21,017 nucleotides of DNA from a virus (IMGVR_UViG_3300044824_000221:1-21017); one strand, 5' to 3'. Counted from the first letter of the stretch, positions 71 through 21,017 are shown. The notes: generated from the sequence alone by a model not told the origin. Translations and numbers: made by a program.

Positions 71-2074
71 ATGAGCAACGTCAACATCAAGAGAGCCGTC
101 GAGAACATACGGGCGAAAACGACCGTTTATTCACCGATTGTCGAAGTCGTCGTCAATGCGATTCAGGCGATTGAAAGCACCAGCGGAAAACACGGGAAAA
201 TTGCCATACGCGTCCACCGGGCCGAACAGCTTGAAATGGATGGCAGTCTCAGCGAGGTCCGCAGCTTTGAAATTGAAGACAACGGCATCGGGTTCACCGG
301 TGAAAACCGTGAGGCTTTCGACACGCTCTATACCGATCTCAAAATCAGCGAAGGCGGAAAGGGGTTTGGCCGGTTCATTTGCCTGAAATATTTCGAGAAT
401 CTGCAGGTCGAGAGCGTCTATAGGGACGAGGAGGGCTTTAAGCAGCGAAAATTCTCGATGGGCAAGGTGAATGACATAATCGTCAATGAAACAGTATCAG
501 CGTCGAAGGAGCAAAGATCGGGCACGACAGTTCATCTTGGCACTCTGAAAGAAGGGACATCGATCGACAAGACGCTCATTACGATTGCGAGAAACCTAGT
601 CGAGAAACTTCTTCCGTACTTTATAACGAAAGATTATTGTTGTCCCGAAATCATTCTATCTGAAAAGGATGGCGCAGAGCCCATCCGCCTGAACGCCTTT
701 TTCACTAATGAGCTAGCTGACGCAATCGTGGAGCTGCCGCTCCAAACCGGTGCTTTTACCCTGCGGGGCAATCAGGCCGACGAGGAGTTCCTTGTCCGGG
801 TCTTTAAGCTGTACTCGCCAAGAAATCAGAAAAGTAAGGTCAGCCTTGTCGCTCACAAACGAGAGGTTTCCGGGTCGCCAATTCACCATTATGTCCCAGA
901 GTTCATCGACGAGTTCTATGAAAACGACGCCGCTGGAAATGCCAATCACGATAGAAACTACATCGTCAAAGCCTACGTTTTCAGCCCGTACCTTGATCGT
1001 AATGTATCGCTCGAGCGAAGCGGATTCGACTTTCAGATGGAAAACGACCTTCAGCAAGGCATATCACAGGTCGACATTGAAAGGCGAGCCGCAATTATTG
1101 CCAAAGATGCCGTTGGCCCGGATATCACGAGCCGGCAGGAGAAGAAGAGAGAACGCGTTCAATCATACGTCGATGATGACGCGCCTTGGCACAAGGGCAT
1201 ACTCGACAAGATCGACTTGACCGGACTGGCGTACAACGCTACTAAGGAAGAAATTGAAAGCCGGTTACAGAAGGAAAAATTCGTCCAGGAAGCTCAGATC
1301 AAAAGGGACGTTACGACACTACTCGCCGGGGGCAGCCTCAAGAGCCTAACAACTGATGTCCTTGAGATCGTCGGCAAGATCTCCGGAACTAGCAAGAACG
1401 ATCTGATCCATTACATCGCGCTTCGGCGAAACATCCTGGACCTTTTCGGGAAGAGCCTTGAGTTGGACGAAGGAGGCGCTTACTCGTCCGAGGGCATCGT
1501 GCACGATATCATCTTCCCCCGCAAAGGCGATACCGAGATCACGTCGTTCGACAACCACAATTTGTGGATCATTGATGAGCGTCTGAATTTTACCAATTAT
1601 GTGTCTTCCGACCTACCTCTTGACGGGGGATCTTCAGAACGCCCTGACTTGCTGGTATACAACAAGCGTATTCTTTTCCGTGGCGACAATGAGGCGAGCA
1701 ATCCGGTAACGATTTTTGAGTTCAAGAAGCCACAGCGAGATGATTTCGTTAACCCTTCATCGAAGGAAGACCCCGTTCAGCAGATTGTGCGGTACGTCAA
1801 TGACATTCGCGACGGAAAATACAAGACGCCTGAAGGCCGGAAGATGCTGATTGCCCAAAACACCCCGTTTTACGGATTTGTCGTTTGCGATCTGACGCGC
1901 AAGGTTGAAACGTGGCTGGAGCGGGAAAAGAACTTTAAGCCCATGCCGGATCGGTTGGGCTGGTTCCAGTGGATTGAAAACATCAATCTCTATGTTGAAG
2001 TGATCAGTTGGGATAAAGTGCTCAGGGATGCGAAGATGCGTAATCAGGTCTTCTTCCAGAAACTCGGCATTTAA
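71..2074 (+). CDS. GHKL (HSP90/MutL/MORC-type) ATPase fused to a PD-(D/E)XK nuclease-like domain
   Basis: This 667-residue protein starts with a Bergerat ATP-binding fold. The N-box has E25 and N29 (VEVVVNA), the G1 motif is DNGIGF at 70-75, and the G2-type glycine lid is GGKGFGR at 95-101. The middle (about 180-480) is unassigned, with charged, probably helical stretches at 370-420. The C-terminal part carries a nuclease-like signature: P525-D526, then E550-F-K552 in a hydrophobic strand (TIFEFKKP), then Q570/Q571 on the following helix. Family knowledge: GHKL ATPases joined to nucleases occur in prokaryotic conflict and restriction-like loci, where nucleotide-driven dimerisation is thought to gate DNA cleavage. 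The inference here is an intracellular defence or DNA-processing enzyme, not a virion protein. The base composition is clearly more A+T-rich than the head genes that follow. The ATG at 71 has only a weak Shine-Dalgarno. The domain calls are fairly sure; the biological role is not. Confidence 0.8.
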   Translation: MSNVNIKRAVENIRAKTTVYSPIVEVVVNAIQAIESTSGKHGKIAIRVHRAEQLEMDGSLSEVRSFEIEDNGIGFTGENREAFDTLYTDLKISEGGKGFGRFICLKYFENLQVESVYRDEEGFKQRKFSMGKVNDIIVNETVSASKEQRSGTTVHLGTLKEGTSIDKTLITIARNLVEKLLPYFITKDYCCPEIILSEKDGAEPIRLNAFFTNELADAIVELPLQTGAFTLRGNQADEEFLVRVFKLYSPRNQKSKVSLVAHKREVSGSPIHHYVPEFIDEFYENDAAGNANHDRNYIVKAYVFSPYLDRNVSLERSGFDFQMENDLQQGISQVDIERRAAIIAKDAVGPDITSRQEKKRERVQSYVDDDAPWHKGILDKIDLTGLAYNATKEEIESRLQKEKFVQEAQIKRDVTTLLAGGSLKSLTTDVLEIVGKISGTSKNDLIHYIALRRNILDLFGKSLELDEGGAYSSEGIVHDIIFPRKGDTEITSFDNHNLWIIDERLNFTNYVSSDLPLDGGSSERPDLLVYNKRILFRGDNEASNPVTIFEFKKPQRDDFVNPSSKEDPVQQIVRYVNDIRDGKYKTPEGRKMLIAQNTPFYGFVVCDLTRKVETWLEREKNFKPMPDRLGWFQWIENINLYVEVISWDKVLRDAKMRNQVFFQKLGI

Positions 2075-16497: not shown

Positions 16498-16914
16498 GTG
16501 CCAGGCAACCTCACACAAGTCGAACCCAACGGGGTGATGCCCGCGTCGCTTTGCACCGCGTTCACGGAGTTGCGGGAGTACGCTCAACTCCAGAACCAGT
16601 ATCACGACGGCACGATCCAGCGGTCGCAACTCGCGCAGACCTCGCGGCGGACGTTCCGGCTCAGCAAACGATTGAGCGCGTCGCTGCTTTCGGCGCTGTA
16701 CAGCTTTTGGGTCTCGCAGAATGCCGGGCTGACGCCGTTCGCATTCTACAACCCGTTCGACGTGTCGGCGGGCCAGCAGATCGGCAGCAACTACGATCCG
16801 ACCGGCAACGACACGCAAGGCCGCGTGACGGCCGTGTTTCGCGGCAACTGGGCGCAGGCCACGGATATCGCGCGGACGAACTTGCAGGCACTGGAACTGG
16901 TGGAGGTGGCGTGA
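16498..16914 (+). CDS. Distal/minor tail protein
   Basis: The 138-residue protein has FTELREYAQLQNQYHDGTIQ near the N-terminus, then SRRTFRLSKRLSASLLSALYSFW and PFAFYNPFD, and ends in FRGNW...NLQALELVEVA. That pattern is typical of small tail-tip proteins downstream of tape measures (tail assembly proteins of the gpM/DUF2460-like type). GTG 16498 follows the tape-measure stop by four bases and preserves an N-terminus (GNLTQVEPNGVMP) that fits the family. ATG 16537 is the alternative. Immediately at its stop a TGATG gives a mini-ORF Met-Gln-stop, which may be the broken start of the original next gene. Confidence 0.72.
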   Translation: MPGNLTQVEPNGVMPASLCTAFTELREYAQLQNQYHDGTIQRSQLAQTSRRTFRLSKRLSASLLSALYSFWVSQNAGLTPFAFYNPFDVSAGQQIGSNYDPTGNDTQGRVTAVFRGNWAQATDIARTNLQALELVEVA

Positions 16915-16938
16915 TGCAGTAAAGCCTAAACGGCCAGA

Positions 16939-16966
16939 TTGACTTCGGCATCCATATTGCTGTAAA
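16939..16966 (+). promoter_or_regulatory. Promoter of the accessory cassette
   Basis: TTGACT (16939-16944) and TGTAAA (16961-16966) are separated by 16 bases and lie just before the repressor-like gene at 16984. The match to -35 is five of six and to -10 four of six. The -10 lies within the inverted repeat described next, so a protein bound there would block transcription. Confidence 0.5.
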
Positions 16967-16980
16967 AACAGTTATACAGC
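16959..16980. promoter_or_regulatory. Probable operator: inverted CTGT/ACAG repeats
   Basis: GCTGTA at 16959-16964 and TACAGC at 16975-16980 are perfect inverted copies. Between them an additional ACAG at 16968-16971 forms CTGT-AAAA-ACAG with the first arm. Three half-sites over the -10 region, four bases before the start codon of a ribbon-helix-helix gene, look like an autoregulatory operator. RHH dimers commonly bind short tandem or inverted boxes of 4-6 bases. Confidence 0.6.
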
Positions 16981-16983
16981 GAT

Positions 16984-17181
16984 ATGGCTAAAACTATCGC
17001 ATCAAGCACTGCTGCGCGGATCGGTGCCAAGAAGAAGGCAACGTTCAATCTGAATGCAGCCTTGCACCAGAGGCTCAAAATCGCTGCTGCGGTGTCCGGG
17101 CGCGAAATGAGTGACATCGTAGAAGAGGCATTGGAAACGCATCTTGATCAAATGGATAAGCAATTGAGGAAAAACGCGTGA
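16984..17181 (+). CDS. Ribbon-helix-helix DNA-binding protein (repressor or antitoxin-like)
   Basis: This 65-residue basic protein has a flexible N-terminus and then one RHH unit: strand KKATFNLNA (about 17-25), helix ALHQRLKIAAAVS (26-38), a GRE turn, and helix MSDIVEEALETHLDQMDKQL (42-61). The pattern fits the ParG/CopG/MetJ class, which acts as dimers or higher oligomers on short repeats. It is the first gene of the cassette, has its own operator, and its stop overlaps the next gene's GTG by GTGA. It is therefore likely to control the cassette. In toxin-antitoxin loci a similar protein would be the antitoxin, but the cargo genes here are larger than typical toxins. Confidence 0.8.
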   Translation: MAKTIASSTAARIGAKKKATFNLNAALHQRLKIAAAVSGREMSDIVEEALETHLDQMDKQLRKNA

Positions 17182-17933
17182 ACACGGGAGCGAGAGGTCC
17201 GAGTCGGGTCACCGTCGTTGACAGTAGCGGCGGAGGTGGATTTGCTGGGCCGTCATTTAGGTCACTGAGGCTTGGCCCAGAGGGGGAGCTGCTGGAGCGC
17301 TTCTTGAGCGCACCGCTGTTTGATGTGCCTTCAGGATGTGAGGCGGTTGTCTTTCGGGAGCCCCGCCTGCCGTCCGGCTTTCCGGATCTGGTTATCGTGA
17401 TTTGGGATCGGAAGAAGACCGCGCGATGGCTCCCAGCTCGGGAAGCATTAACTCGCGAGGATGTGCGGGTGGCCCATTACATGTACCACAAGGGAGCGTG
17501 TTCCGATAAGCAGCTAAAGGCTATCTTTACGGGTTCGGTGAGTAAGAACTTAGAGCGTCTGGACGCTGCCGGAGTTTTACGTGCCGATGGGGCGCGTTGG
17601 CACTTGCGGCCGATGGCGAACGTGTTCGCAGCGCGACAGATCATTGCGGTGGAGGCGAAAATCAGCGAGTGGAAAGTGGGACTGGAGCAGGCAGTGTTGA
17701 ACACTTGGTTCGCTTCGGAGTCGTACATGCTCGTCCCGAATCTGTCTAGCCGGAGTTCATTGCTGGAGCGAGCAAAAGCGCTTGGTATCGGCGTCTGGGC
17801 GAACGATCATACTCCTGTTAAGCCCGAGAGAGCGAAGCGCCTGCCACGTTCCTATGCGTCATGGTTGTTCAACGAGTGGGCTTGGCGCGTAAGCGCAGGA
17901 AGCAGAGTGAATGGCGAATGGTGTTCGGCTTGA
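17178..17933 (+). CDS. PD-(D/E)XK nuclease-like protein interrupted by a winged-helix domain
   Basis: The 251-residue protein shows a split nuclease-like signature: E55 in GCEAVVF, P69-D70 in SGFPDLVIVIWD, then, after an inserted segment, E159-A-K161 in IIAVEAKISEW and E170-Q171 in VGLEQAVLNTWFASESYMLVP. This strand-helix-strand layout is that of the restriction endonuclease-like fold. The insertion at about 92-145 (TREDVRVAHYMYHKGACSDKQLKAIF...VSKNLERLDAAGVLRADGARWHL) looks like a winged helix, which could bind DNA or a partner. The start overlaps the RHH gene and the end overlaps the kinase gene by 23 bases, indicating coupled translation. The likely activity is DNA or RNA cleavage, or target recognition if catalytically dead. 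The residues for catalysis appear present. The fold assignment is from motif reading, not a search. Confidence 0.7.
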   Translation: MNTGARGPSRVTVVDSSGGGGFAGPSFRSLRLGPEGELLERFLSAPLFDVPSGCEAVVFREPRLPSGFPDLVIVIWDRKKTARWLPAREALTREDVRVAHYMYHKGACSDKQLKAIFTGSVSKNLERLDAAGVLRADGARWHLRPMANVFAARQIIAVEAKISEWKVGLEQAVLNTWFASESYMLVPNLSSRSSLLERAKALGIGVWANDHTPVKPERAKRLPRSYASWLFNEWAWRVSAGSRVNGEWCSA

Positions 17934-18771
17934 CACGGGTTGGGTCCAGGCACACTTCCCAGACCTAACAAATATCGCTGCCTTGAATTCGGGCGGCCAG
18001 AAAATCGTATTCGCGGCAACGCATCCGGTTGATGGTGACGTTGTCCTGAAGCTTATCAATCCAGGCCAGCCGAATGAGACGACTGATCGTGAGGTCCTCG
18101 CTGTCCAAATAGTCCAGTCCCCGAGGGTTCCCCGCATCTTGGACCAGGGCCGGGTTCAGATTGCAACCGGGGAGCTTGTTTGGTTGCGAGAGCAACGCAT
18201 CGTCGGGGAGACGGTCAGGCAAGCCCTCACGGGCGGCGCATTTGATAAACGAAAACTCTTGCGACTGGGGTTGCACGTCCTTGAGGCTCTGATAAAGGCA
18301 GAGGAAGCCCAAATCGTCCACCGGGATATCAAGCCAGACAACGTGATCATCGATGGAAGTGATGATTGTTGGCTGCTAGACTTTGGCATTGCGCGGCACC
18401 TCACTTTGAGGTCACTGACTGGCACGGGACAGATCTGGGGCAAGTTCACTCTCGGGTATTCACCGCCCGAACAAATGCGCAATCTCAAGCCTCAAATAGA
18501 CTCGCGAGCGGACCTATTCGCTTTGGGAGTCACCCTTTACGAATGCGCCACGGGGCGGCACCCTTTCCGCCAGCCACCTGCCGGCGACCTTGAGATTCTC
18601 AAGCGGGTCGAGACTCTAACGTTGACCCCATTGAATTTGACTTTTTCAACCGCGACCGAGTTTCGCGATCTCGTGGACGCTATGACGCAGAAGAGGCGGG
18701 ATCTGCGTCCAGCTTCGGTGAAGGAGGCGTTCGCGTGGATGCAGGAGATATGTACAAGAGAGCAGGTGTGA
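17911..18771 (+). CDS. Hanks-type serine/threonine protein kinase
   Basis: A 286-residue single-domain kinase with all catalytic landmarks: a glycine-rich loop (NSGGQKIVF, 26-34), ATP lysine K47 (VVLKLI), helix C glutamate E61, HRDIKPDN at 137-144, DFG at 157-159, SPPEQ at 184-188 and D201 in SRADLFALGV. It is expected to phosphorylate Ser/Thr on a protein partner in the cytoplasm. There is no membrane segment and no PASTA or other sensor domain, so it must sense its signal through a partner. The gene overlaps the nuclease-like gene by 23 bases and is followed by the conserved 401-residue gene. Kinases linked to nucleases occur in defence systems such as BREX (PglW) and Stk2-type abortive infection. 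The ATG at 17911 keeps the N-terminal lobe complete. Confidence 0.92.
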   Translation: MANGVRLDTGWVQAHFPDLTNIAALNSGGQKIVFAATHPVDGDVVLKLINPGQPNETTDREVLAVQIVQSPRVPRILDQGRVQIATGELVWLREQRIVGETVRQALTGGAFDKRKLLRLGLHVLEALIKAEEAQIVHRDIKPDNVIIDGSDDCWLLDFGIARHLTLRSLTGTGQIWGKFTLGYSPPEQMRNLKPQIDSRADLFALGVTLYECATGRHPFRQPPAGDLEILKRVETLTLTPLNLTFSTATEFRDLVDAMTQKRRDLRPASVKEAFAWMQEICTREQV

Positions 18772-18836
18772 ATGAATGGAGGTCTTTCTTCACGCTGGCA
18801 TGGTCCTTCGGCGAAGGCGCCGCCGCTTTGAAATTC

Positions 18837-18845
18837 GAGGGGAGG
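18837..18845 (+). promoter_or_regulatory. Strong Shine-Dalgarno deciding the start of the 401-residue gene
   Basis: GAGGGGAGG ends eight bases before ATG 18854. It picks this ATG over ATG 18776, which overlaps the kinase end region, has no site and would add an odd stretch of six arginines. Confidence 0.7.
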
Positions 18846-18853
18846 AAAGTCTG

Positions 18854-20059
18854 ATGCAGCTACACCTTCAATTCGGATACGGCATGATGGAACATTGCCG
18901 TTCGTTGATCTCGTTGTGGAACGGCGGGACGGCAATCCTTAGCCCGCGCGATCTCGATGACGAACAGCTAGAAAGACTAGCCGGGAGCATTAACGCATTG
19001 CCCGGTGGTGAGTGCTTGCTCGATCCGCAGTTCTATTTGCCACATGCGGACCACGAGCGGCTATGCTCTCACGATTACTGGCCAGCGGAATACGAGACGG
19101 GGGTGTTCTTTCAAGGGCCTGCGTTGACGAACCTCCTGCGAAAGCTACGAGAGCTGAATGTTCGCCTGGGTTGCCGCGCGTTCATATTGCCCGGACTTCT
19201 GGCCGGCTCGGTTGACGACGACTGGCTAGCAACACAGCGAGCCATCATTGAAGAGGCACAGGCGAAGGAGAAGCAGTTTCCCCTAATCGCGACGATTGCG
19301 TTGTCGGCGGAAGCGGCGAAGGATGAAGATCAGATTGCGCTTCTGCTGGAGGCAGCAGAGCAGTGGAGTGTCCAACGGTATTACGTTGTTTGCGAGCACC
19401 CGAACGGACAATACCTAGTCGCCGAACCGAACTGGGTAGCCAATGTCATTGATCTAGCTGCAGGGCTGCGCCTCCGAGGCGCCAATGTTGTGTTGGGCTA
19501 CTGCAATCACCAAATGTTAATTGCTGCCCTCGCGAAAGTGAACGCCATTGCCTCAGGTACGTGGATGAACGTTCGCTCATTTCCACCGGACAAGTTCAAG
19601 GCTCCGTATGAGGATGAGATCAAGCAACGGGCCACTTGGTATTACTGCGCCCAAGCCCTTTCCGAATATAAGATACCCTACCTTGATATTGCGAGACGGC
19701 AGAAGGTTCTGCCTCTGATGGCTCCTCCAGCAGATCTTGATGGCGGATTTGTCACTGCGCTCTTTAGTGGAGTCCAACCGTCATCGGTGCCCTTCAGTGA
19801 ACAGGCGGCGTTTCGGCATTATTTGCACTGCTTGCGCGGACAATGCCTAACGGCGACTGAGACGAGCTTCGATGCTACCGTGGCTAGTCAGGAACAGTTG
19901 CTAGACAATGCAGAAGGCCTATTGCAACGCCTTGCGACGTCTGGAATCCGTGGCAATCTGCGCGATTTCGGGGAGATCGTTGAGGTAAATCGAGCAGCTT
20001 TGGTTCTCTTCAAGACTCTCCGTGGCGCAGTCTTGCGGCGCCGCTGGTCAACACTTTAG
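18854..20059 (+). CDS. Protein of unknown family, possibly TIM-barrel fold, third enzyme-like member of the cassette
   Basis: The 401-residue protein has strands and helices in alternation: LHLQFGYG, TAILSPRDL (27-34), GECLLDPQFYLP (52-63), RLGCRAFILPGLL (104-116), FPLIATIALS (142-151), VQRYYVVCEHP (173-183), GANVVLGYCNH (209-219), ASGTWMNVRSFP (233-244) and YKIPYLDIA. An eight-fold beta-alpha order is possible, so a TIM barrel is my best guess; tRNA-guanine transglycosylase-like barrels have similar size, but no diagnostic motif was seen. The His/Asp/Cys-rich stretches (LPHADHERLCSHDYWP; GYCNHQM) might form an active site or bind metal. The C-terminal 100 residues are helical. ATG 18854 is supported by a strong Shine-Dalgarno. 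It lies 82 bases after the kinase and presumably on the same transcript. I do not know a named family. Confidence 0.75.
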   Translation: MQLHLQFGYGMMEHCRSLISLWNGGTAILSPRDLDDEQLERLAGSINALPGGECLLDPQFYLPHADHERLCSHDYWPAEYETGVFFQGPALTNLLRKLRELNVRLGCRAFILPGLLAGSVDDDWLATQRAIIEEAQAKEKQFPLIATIALSAEAAKDEDQIALLLEAAEQWSVQRYYVVCEHPNGQYLVAEPNWVANVIDLAAGLRLRGANVVLGYCNHQMLIAALAKVNAIASGTWMNVRSFPPDKFKAPYEDEIKQRATWYYCAQALSEYKIPYLDIARRQKVLPLMAPPADLDGGFVTALFSGVQPSSVPFSEQAAFRHYLHCLRGQCLTATETSFDATVASQEQLLDNAEGLLQRLATSGIRGNLRDFGEIVEVNRAALVLFKTLRGAVLRRRWSTL

Positions 20060-20120
20060 GTATTCGTTGCGGTTGGCGACAAGCGCTGGTAGACGTCGCC
20101 ACTCGCGCTGATCGGAGAAG

Positions 20121-20744
20121 GTGTTGGAAGATAGACCCCACCGGACGAGCTACCTCTCGGAACACACGATTGAGTTCTACCTCGTGCCGCGATTCCGACG
20201 GACCCTAGCCGCAGATTTCAGATCGACTCTCGCATTCTACTTCTGGGCATCGCGAGAGGGTTCAATCGCCTCCCGATCAGTTTGCGCTCCTGAACGAGTG
20301 CGGCTGGTTGCTGTTTACCCTCGTCGTCCCAAGCTCGGGGTCGACCGCGGAATGCCGATCATGAAGGTCAACGCCGGACTTTTTCGCTGCGCCGCCGAGT
20401 TTCGGCGCGTCGGGGTCCCGGTGTTCGTAGGTTTCCCGCTGGTGAAATCGATCTTCGAGTTTTCTGACGACGTCGAGTTCCTTTGGTTCGCTTTGCGCGG
20501 CGACGAAACTGAAGGAGATATTGAGGTCGAAATGAGAGCAATCACCAACTTTCAATCCAAGACCCCTTCACTTCAAGGCCCGCTAAGCGATCAGGATATT
20601 TGTCGGCTAGTCACGCAAGAGTCAGAGCCTGTGCCCTGGGACAGAGCAATCGAAGCCATCAATCATGTTCGCCGGCAGGATGCGGATAACGGGCTGTGGC
20701 CTCTAGGACGGGGCTATAAGCCTGTGTATTTTCTCGCGTGGTAG
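20121..20744 (+). CDS. 207-residue protein of unknown function, last gene of the cassette
   Basis: The gene starts at GTG 20121 or, with better spacing to the GGAG upstream, TTG 20124. It follows the 401-residue gene by about 60 bases. The sequence has an N-terminal part rich in Arg and Phe (EFYLVPRFRRTLAADF), a beta strand (RVRLVAVYPRR), a central alpha/beta part (GVPVFVGFPLVKSIFEF; VEFLWFALRG), and an end with PLGRGYKPVYFLAW. No transmembrane segment or known motif is visible. Conservation cannot be judged here. Its place at the end of the same strand and the absence of a separate promoter suggest that it acts with the kinase, nuclease-like and 401-residue proteins. It might instead be an independent cargo gene. 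Confidence 0.65.
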   Translation: MLEDRPHRTSYLSEHTIEFYLVPRFRRTLAADFRSTLAFYFWASREGSIASRSVCAPERVRLVAVYPRRPKLGVDRGMPIMKVNAGLFRCAAEFRRVGVPVFVGFPLVKSIFEFSDDVEFLWFALRGDETEGDIEVEMRAITNFQSKTPSLQGPLSDQDICRLVTQESEPVPWDRAIEAINHVRRQDADNGLWPLGRGYKPVYFLAW

Positions 20745-20940
20745 CTCATTATCTGTTCCCTCACGATCCAAGACGCATCGATCAGGACCATTCTCTTGGC
20801 AGCCGGGCAAGTAAATTCCTTGCGACCTCACCAGGTTGACTTAACGATTTAACAGCCGGTTCACTCGAGGACCATGCGTTGACGCGCTGGGCGTTAGAGC
20901 GTGGATGTTGCCGCCCTCATCACCTCGGTTCCAACAAAGA

Positions 20941-21017
20941 AATGTCAGACACCATCGGCCGCATCACCGTCCCCGCGGTGATTAACTCCAGCCAGACATT
21001 CCCGCTCACCACGCGAT
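20941..21017 (+). CDS. 5' end of a phage tail protein (partial, runs off the window)
   Basis: ATG 20941 opens a frame with 25 complete codons (SDTIGRITVPAVINSSQTFP...) to the end of the window. The GRITVP...SQTFPL start is similar to short minor tail proteins that follow the distal tail protein in siphophages. The virion module therefore resumes here after the accessory cassette. Its G+C content returns to the level of the head genes. Confidence 0.55.

What the first reader, a model, noticed from the sequence alone, without database searches (positions are those of the whole stretch)
16915..20940. Five-gene accessory operon inserted in the tail module: repressor, winged-helix nuclease-like protein, Ser/Thr kinase, 401-residue enzyme-like protein and a 207-residue protein
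Plus-strand virion genes stop at 16914 and resume at 20941. In between lie five codirectional genes with translational coupling (GTGA overlap, then a 23-base overlap), their own promoter and operator, and a visibly lower G+C content. None has a virion role. Nuclease plus kinase is a pairing seen in anti-phage systems, yet I do not recognise this exact set with a possible TIM-barrel partner. I infer a self-regulated defence or superinfection-exclusion system, carried between tail genes.
Basis: partly seen in the sequence, partly recalled or inferred. Interest (0 to 1): 0.85.

Follow-up and report, generated by a model that had tools for sequence, protein, structure and literature searches.

The report
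Phage-borne nuclease–kinase–TGT-fold defence cassette
A virus of soil bacteria carries, in a slot between two tail genes where its relatives each carry different (often known) anti-virus genes, a three-gene set – a DNA-cutting-type enzyme, a protein kinase and a protein with the fold of a tRNA base-swapping enzyme – that recurs as a unit in bacteria and archaea and is most likely an undescribed system for excluding competing viruses.

Summary
(1) A PD-(D/E)XK-type nuclease with an inserted winged helix, (2) an intact Hanks kinase and (3) a TIM barrel recur side by side in phages, plasmids, many bacterial phyla and haloarchaea. All 18 loci from a scan keyed on gene 3 alone have the kinase, 16 the nuclease; in an independent draw, 15 of 18 new loci have all three. 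Catalytic residues are invariant in 26 trios and the genes co-evolve (Spearman ~0.82). The repressor and the 207-residue protein are not core. The TIM-barrel model matches tRNA-guanine transglycosylases best (Z 19.9), but no sequence homology is detectable, and it lacks the zinc triad and apparently the nucleophilic Asp. The site is a cargo hotspot: of 57 related phages, 5 have the tail genes abutting and 50 carry 0.6–4.7 kb of mostly unrelated cargo, including Lamassu-, TIR- and HEC-like defence genes. Best reading: a kinase-controlled nuclease defence system with a TGT-fold sensor. Defence is inferred from context; no activity has been tested.

The parts
16498..16914 (+). Conserved tail gene, left border of the cargo hotspot
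   Evidence: 70 viral contigs encode a relative; in 5 related phages its stop abuts or overlaps the start of the next tail gene
16959..16980 (.). Dyad GCTGTA-N10-TACAGC, possible operator of the ribbon-helix-helix repressor
   Evidence: Read from sequence; function inferred, chance not assessed
16984..17181 (+). 65-aa ribbon-helix-helix protein, local repressor; not core
   Evidence: Arc-like phrog_3180 E 3.5e-7, RH3 domain E 9.6e-6; among the first relatives found only in twin phage L002
17178..17933 (+). Core gene 1: PD-(D/E)XK-type nuclease with inserted winged helix (251 aa)
   Evidence: AF2 pLDDT 88; E35, D70, E159, K161, Q171 invariant in 26 trios; winged helix inserted between PD and ExK; VIA matches to PaqCI (Z 8.5, 130 aligned) and 3dnx
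17911..18771 (+). Core gene 2: Hanks-type Ser/Thr protein kinase (286 aa)
   Evidence: Pkinase E 2.7e-23; Lys47, Glu61, HRD, Lys141, Asn144, Asp157 and Gly159 invariant in 26 trios
18854..20059 (+). Core gene 3: TIM-barrel protein of TGT-like fold (401 aa), unclassified family
   Evidence: AF2 pLDDT 91.4, pTM 0.92; top 50 structural matches all tRNA-guanine transglycosylases, best Z 19.9; no Pfam or PADLOC family; invariant Q6, G8, S30, P31, D57, P58, Q59, Y61, P113, Y177
20121..20744 (+). 207-aa ORF of unknown nature, probably not part of the system
   Evidence: No family; only in twin phage L002; 9 synonymous vs 17 nonsynonymous codon differences
20942..21017 (+). Start of the next conserved tail gene, right border of the hotspot (truncated by the window end)
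   Evidence: Homologous to the tail gene of L002; located in 57 related contigs

Best explanation
A temperate phage carries, in a defence-cargo hotspot between two tail genes, a three-gene anti-phage (superinfection-exclusion) system. Proposed mechanism: the TGT-fold barrel protein binds a nucleic acid or base-like ligand at the conserved mouth of its barrel and acts as sensor or adaptor. The Hanks kinase turns that into phosphorylation of a partner. The PD-(D/E)XK nuclease, with its winged helix for DNA contact, then cuts the invader's (or the host's) nucleic acid. In some loci a PP2C phosphatase probably resets the switch. Shown: the trio, its recurrence, invariant catalytic residues, co-evolution, a kinase-barrel fusion, the hotspot and the restriction-modification or phosphatase neighbours. 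Inferred: defence, sensing by the barrel, and the order kinase then nuclease.
For: Scan keyed on the barrel alone: kinase beside it in 18/18 genome loci, nuclease in 16/18. Independent draw of 1,574 genomes in five phyla: 23 hits; of 18 new loci, 15 have all three genes, including one kinase-barrel fusion. Distances of the three proteins correlate, Spearman 0.82-0.83, 0 of 5000 permutations. Nuclease and kinase catalytic residues invariant in 26 trios. Hotspot: 5/57 related phages with the flanking tail genes abutting, 2 with under 200 nt between them, 50/57 with 595-4687 nt of cargo, all 50 lower in G+C. Cargo proteins match PADLOC LmuA/LmuB, TIR-TM, PD-T4-2, HEC-05, HEC-09 and GajB-like models. 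Elsewhere the trio neighbours type I/IIG restriction-modification genes and a convergent PP2C phosphatase in 4 loci. The twin phage has an integrase. The trio is 98-99% identical between the twins while the flanking tail genes are 87-89%: recent transfer.
Against: No phage-resistance data exist. Hotspots also hold non-defence genes. Overall nuclease fold support is moderate: no Foldseek hit below E 0.001. The barrel's substrate is unknown and its link to TGT is structural only. A few loci lack a gene (L154: no kinase; L166: fragment only; L017: nuclease remnant).
Confidence: 0.6

Rival explanations
1. A restriction-modification-like system: the TGT-fold protein exchanges a base in self DNA (as DpdA does), the nuclease cuts unmarked DNA, and the kinase regulates.
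For: TGT homologues mark DNA in Dpd systems and are proposed to do so in BRC systems (PMC12839542; PMC6884629 listed). TGT-like fold.
Against: The beta-8 position where TGT and DpdA have the nucleophilic Asp is Ala/Ser/Cys/Gly in all 21 full-length members, and none has CxCxxC (Asp equivalence placed by eye). No profile homology to TGT or DpdA. No 7-deazaguanine genes were recognised beside the trios.
Confidence: 0.12
2. An abortive-infection system acting on RNA: the TGT-fold protein binds tRNA, and activation by the kinase lets the nuclease destroy tRNA or mRNA.
For: The fold is that of tRNA-binding enzymes. Kinases often act in abortive systems (general knowledge).
Against: The winged helix and the match to restriction enzymes suggest DNA. 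No RNA evidence.
Confidence: 0.13
3. A counter-defence or lysogeny-control module that helps the carrying phage, not an exclusion system.
For: It is carried by phages. The RHH gene upstream could tie it to lysogeny.
Against: It is also on plasmids and chromosomes of distant phyla and haloarchaea. Other cargo of the same site matches defence families.
Confidence: 0.1
4. A stress or metabolic regulation cassette without a role in conflict.
For: Hanks kinases and PP2C phosphatases are common in ordinary signalling (general knowledge; PP2C neighbours).
Against: Patchy distribution (about 1% of sampled genomes), a mobile setting, a nuclease with an invariant active site and the defence hotspot.
Confidence: 0.05

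Closest known systems
tRNA-guanine transglycosylase (TGT) superfamily, including DpdA of Dpd systems and the TGT of BRC systems
   Same: TIM-barrel protein of TGT-like fold (VIA Z up to 19.9 over 306 residues, 3.5 A); invariant Asp after the third strand (DPQxY here, DSGG in TGT); two remote members (L153, L154) keep a CxCxxC motif
   Different: No sequence homology detectable; no Asp at the inferred nucleophile position; no zinc triad in 22 members; partners are a kinase and a nuclease, not DpdB/DpdC or PglZ
Phage and satellite defence hotspots (P2/P4, Rousset et al. 2022, PMC9122126)
   Same: Short, 1-5 kb class locus of high turnover between two conserved phage genes, holding anti-phage systems
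   Different: Located between two abutting tail genes in an uncultured soil phage group
PD-T4-6 and other single-kinase defence genes; MAD6 and PglW kinases
   Same: Hanks-type kinase related to these models (PD-T4-6 E 4e-39)
   Different: Compact 286-aa kinase in a fixed three-gene set; matches far below NCBIfam cut-offs for MAD6 and PglW
PD-(D/E)XK restriction-type nucleases (PaqCI, NERD, TnsA class)
   Same: E, PD, ExK and Q motif and fold order
   Different: Winged helix inserted between PD and ExK; some relatives are 133-158 aa without it

Membership tests
TGT enzyme family (PF01702) | Sequence profile match | tested here: not met
   No Pfam TGT hit in 22 members or in remote members; hhalign probability below 1%
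TGT enzyme family (PF01702) | TGT-type TIM-barrel fold | tested here: met
   Top 50 VIA matches all TGT, Z 18.0-19.9; margin over other TIM barrels not shown by the tool
TGT enzyme family (PF01702) | Zinc site CxCxxC with His | tested here: not met
   No CxCxxC in 22 members; present in remote relatives L153 and L154
TGT enzyme family (PF01702) | Nucleophilic Asp at the end of beta-8 | tested here: inconclusive
   Column 233/234 never Asp; equivalence placed by eye
Dpd system | DpdA with DpdB/DpdC and 7-deazaguanine supply | tested here: inconclusive
   No PADLOC Dpd hit for the barrel; no profile match to phage DpdA; neighbours read only by the 25 most frequent families
PD-(D/E)XK nuclease superfamily | E, D, ExK, Q motif in an alpha-beta-beta-beta-alpha-beta core | tested here: met
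   Invariant in 26 trios; order of elements in the AF2 model
PD-(D/E)XK nuclease superfamily | Nuclease activity | not testable with these tools
   Needs biochemistry
Hanks-type protein kinase | VAIK Lys, HRD and DFG motifs | tested here: met
   Invariant in 26 trios except the middle residue of DFG
Phage defence hotspot | High-turnover locus between conserved genes with known defence systems | tested here: met
   57 sites, 5 with abutting tail genes, 50 filled, 75 clusters of 91 ORFs; PADLOC hits
Anti-phage defence system | Reduces phage infection | not testable with these tools
   Needs plaque assays

The most novel reading that the evidence does not exclude
A new class of immune system in bacteria and archaea in which a TGT-fold protein that has lost its base-exchange chemistry senses foreign nucleic acid or a modified base, and a kinase/phosphatase switch licenses a nuclease.
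Probability: 0.3. Interest if true: 0.9.

Novelty: new variant of a known kind. Interest (0 to 1): 0.76.

Why it matters
It defines an undescribed, testable three-gene candidate immune system shared by bacteria, archaea and phages, built around a TGT-like barrel with no assigned family. It also reveals a defence-cargo hotspot between tail genes of an uncultured soil phage group, which can be mined for further systems. If the barrel is a degenerate base-exchange enzyme used as a sensor, it links the modified-base arms race to phosphorylation-controlled immunity.

Tried and rejected
Family libraries (Pfam, NCBIfam, PADLOC, PHROGs) gave nothing for genes 1, 3 and 5. phmmer and hmmsearch against PDB chains gave nothing for the barrel and only winged helices for the nuclease. 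Foldseek alone ranked mixed TIM barrels with low TM for the barrel and no significant hit for the nuclease. hhalign to TGT and DpdA was negative. Paper searches for kinase + TIM barrel or TGT + phage defence found only BRC/Dpd. The idea that the RHH and the 207-aa gene belong to the system was dropped. The promoter scan was empty. A virion role was rejected: five related phages have the tail genes directly adjacent.

Full report
WHAT IS THERE. The window is a 21 kb viral record. The third core gene most likely starts at 18854 (401 aa), since its relatives start at that Met. Pfam, PADLOC, NCBIfam and PHROGs recognise only the ribbon-helix-helix protein and the kinase.

THE UNIT IS THREE GENES. 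Searches with the 401-aa protein found relatives in phages L002, L003, L006 and L007, a Polaromonas plasmid and a haloarchaeal plasmid. A scan of the genome collection returned 18 loci, from Myxococcota, Gemmatimonadota, Armatimonadota, Nitrospirota, Campylobacterota, Bacillota, Pseudomonadota, Elusimicrobia, Acidobacteria and Halobacteria among others. The query was this protein family alone, yet the kinase lies next to it in all 18 and the nuclease-like protein in 16. Of the two others, L017 keeps a nuclease fragment and L025 ends at a contig edge. An independent profile search of 1,574 genomes in five phyla gave 23 hits, 5 of them the known centres, so about 1% of genomes. Of the 18 new loci, 15 have all three genes. 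In L153 kinase and barrel are one 690-aa protein. Pairwise distances of the three proteins correlate at 0.82-0.83 across 26 trios, with no permutation in 5000 reaching it. The RHH and the 207-aa gene occur only in the near-identical phage L002 among the loci compared.

THE PROTEINS. Nuclease: an AF2 model (pLDDT 88) shows helix, strands with PD70, an inserted winged helix (about residues 86-143), then a strand carrying E159-x-K161, a helix with Q171, and two more strands. E35, D70, E159, K161 and Q171 are invariant in 26 trios. The second-look aligner gives the type IIS enzyme PaqCI (Z 8.5, 130 residues, 3.1 A) and 3dnx (Z 8.8, 133 residues, 4.8 A); the other top rows are winged helices. Foldseek found nothing below E 0.001, so the nuclease call rests on motif plus topology. 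Short relatives of 133-158 aa lack the winged helix, and one matches NERD at E 0.001. Kinase: all catalytic residues are invariant. Barrel: AF2 pLDDT 91.4, pTM 0.92. VIA-align ranks tRNA-guanine transglycosylases first to fiftieth (Z 19.9-18.0, about 300 residues), and the best viral match is annotated queuine tRNA-ribosyltransferase. Sequence profiles do not detect this. An invariant Asp follows the third strand (DPQxY, compare LTDSGGFQ in TGT). At the end of the eighth strand, where TGT has FDCVxPTR and phage DpdA has DSSTW, this family has ASGxxxN, so the nucleophile appears lost; this equivalence is by eye. None of 22 members has CxCxxC, but remote relatives L153 and L154 do, which supports descent from the TGT superfamily. 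The pocket residues are strongly conserved, so the barrel is probably a binding protein or an altered enzyme and not mere scaffold (inference).

THE SETTING. The left-border tail gene was found in 70 viral contigs. In 57 both borders could be placed. In five the two tail genes abut or overlap by a few bases, which gives the empty site and excludes a virion role for the insert; two more have 153 and 183 nt between them. Fifty carry 595-4687 nt of cargo, and 91 cargo ORFs fall into 75 sequence clusters. Cargo G+C is 55.5% against 63.6% in the flank, lower in 50 of 50. A few of the 57 contigs carry the same cargo, so they are not all independent. Fifty-nine representative cargo proteins (trio left out) include strong PADLOC matches: LmuA/LmuB, TIR proteins, PD-T4-2, HEC-05, HEC-09, GajB-like and methyl-directed restriction enzymes, with GmrSD_N and TIR domains in Pfam. 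This is the pattern described for P2/P4 hotspots (PMC9122126). L002 carries an integrase. Its trio is 98-99% identical in DNA to the window's while the flanking tail genes are 87-89%, so the cassette moved recently. The trio shows purifying selection (37 synonymous vs 9 nonsynonymous codon differences) and the 207-aa gene does not (9 vs 17). On chromosomes and plasmids the trio often has type I/IIG restriction-modification genes nearby. In L006, L015, L016 and L019 a PP2C phosphatase converges on it.

INTERPRETATION. Most likely a mobile anti-phage system: barrel as sensor or adaptor, kinase as switch, nuclease as effector, phosphatase as reset where present. The defence role is inferred from context and domain logic; the order of events is a proposal. 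Restriction-modification-like, RNA-directed, counter-defence and non-conflict readings are weighed as rivals. No described system with this set was found in the libraries or in the open papers searched, which does not cover subscription journals or preprints.

Noticed in passing
window 71-2074: 667-aa GHKL-type ATPase (HATPase_c E 1.1e-8) with a weak HSDR_N-like C-terminal region, in 49-52% G+C DNA against about 62% around it: looks like a second accessory, possibly defence, gene.
   Followed up: no
tail-module hotspot in L062-L131: Fifty related phages carry mostly unrelated low-G+C cargo at this site, many ORFs without a PADLOC or Pfam family listed: a source of candidate defence systems.
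   Followed up: partly
L154:709-5429: A remote barrel relative with CxCxxC and a short nuclease sit directly beside TnsA and a TnsB-like transposase of a Tn7-like element, without a kinase.
   Followed up: partly
L153:3972-6044 (-): Natural fusion of kinase and barrel in one 690-aa protein that keeps a TGT-like CxCxxC.
   Followed up: partly
L030:7323-8422 and L031:7953-9430: Remnants of the cassette in other phages: intact nuclease gene, truncated kinase, no barrel, next to terminase or head genes.
   Followed up: partly
L015:8186-8956, L016:8185-8916, L019:8181-8927, L006:4990-5733 (all -): A PP2C phosphatase gene converges on the trio; it matches the PADLOC candidate PDC-M21C.
   Followed up: partly
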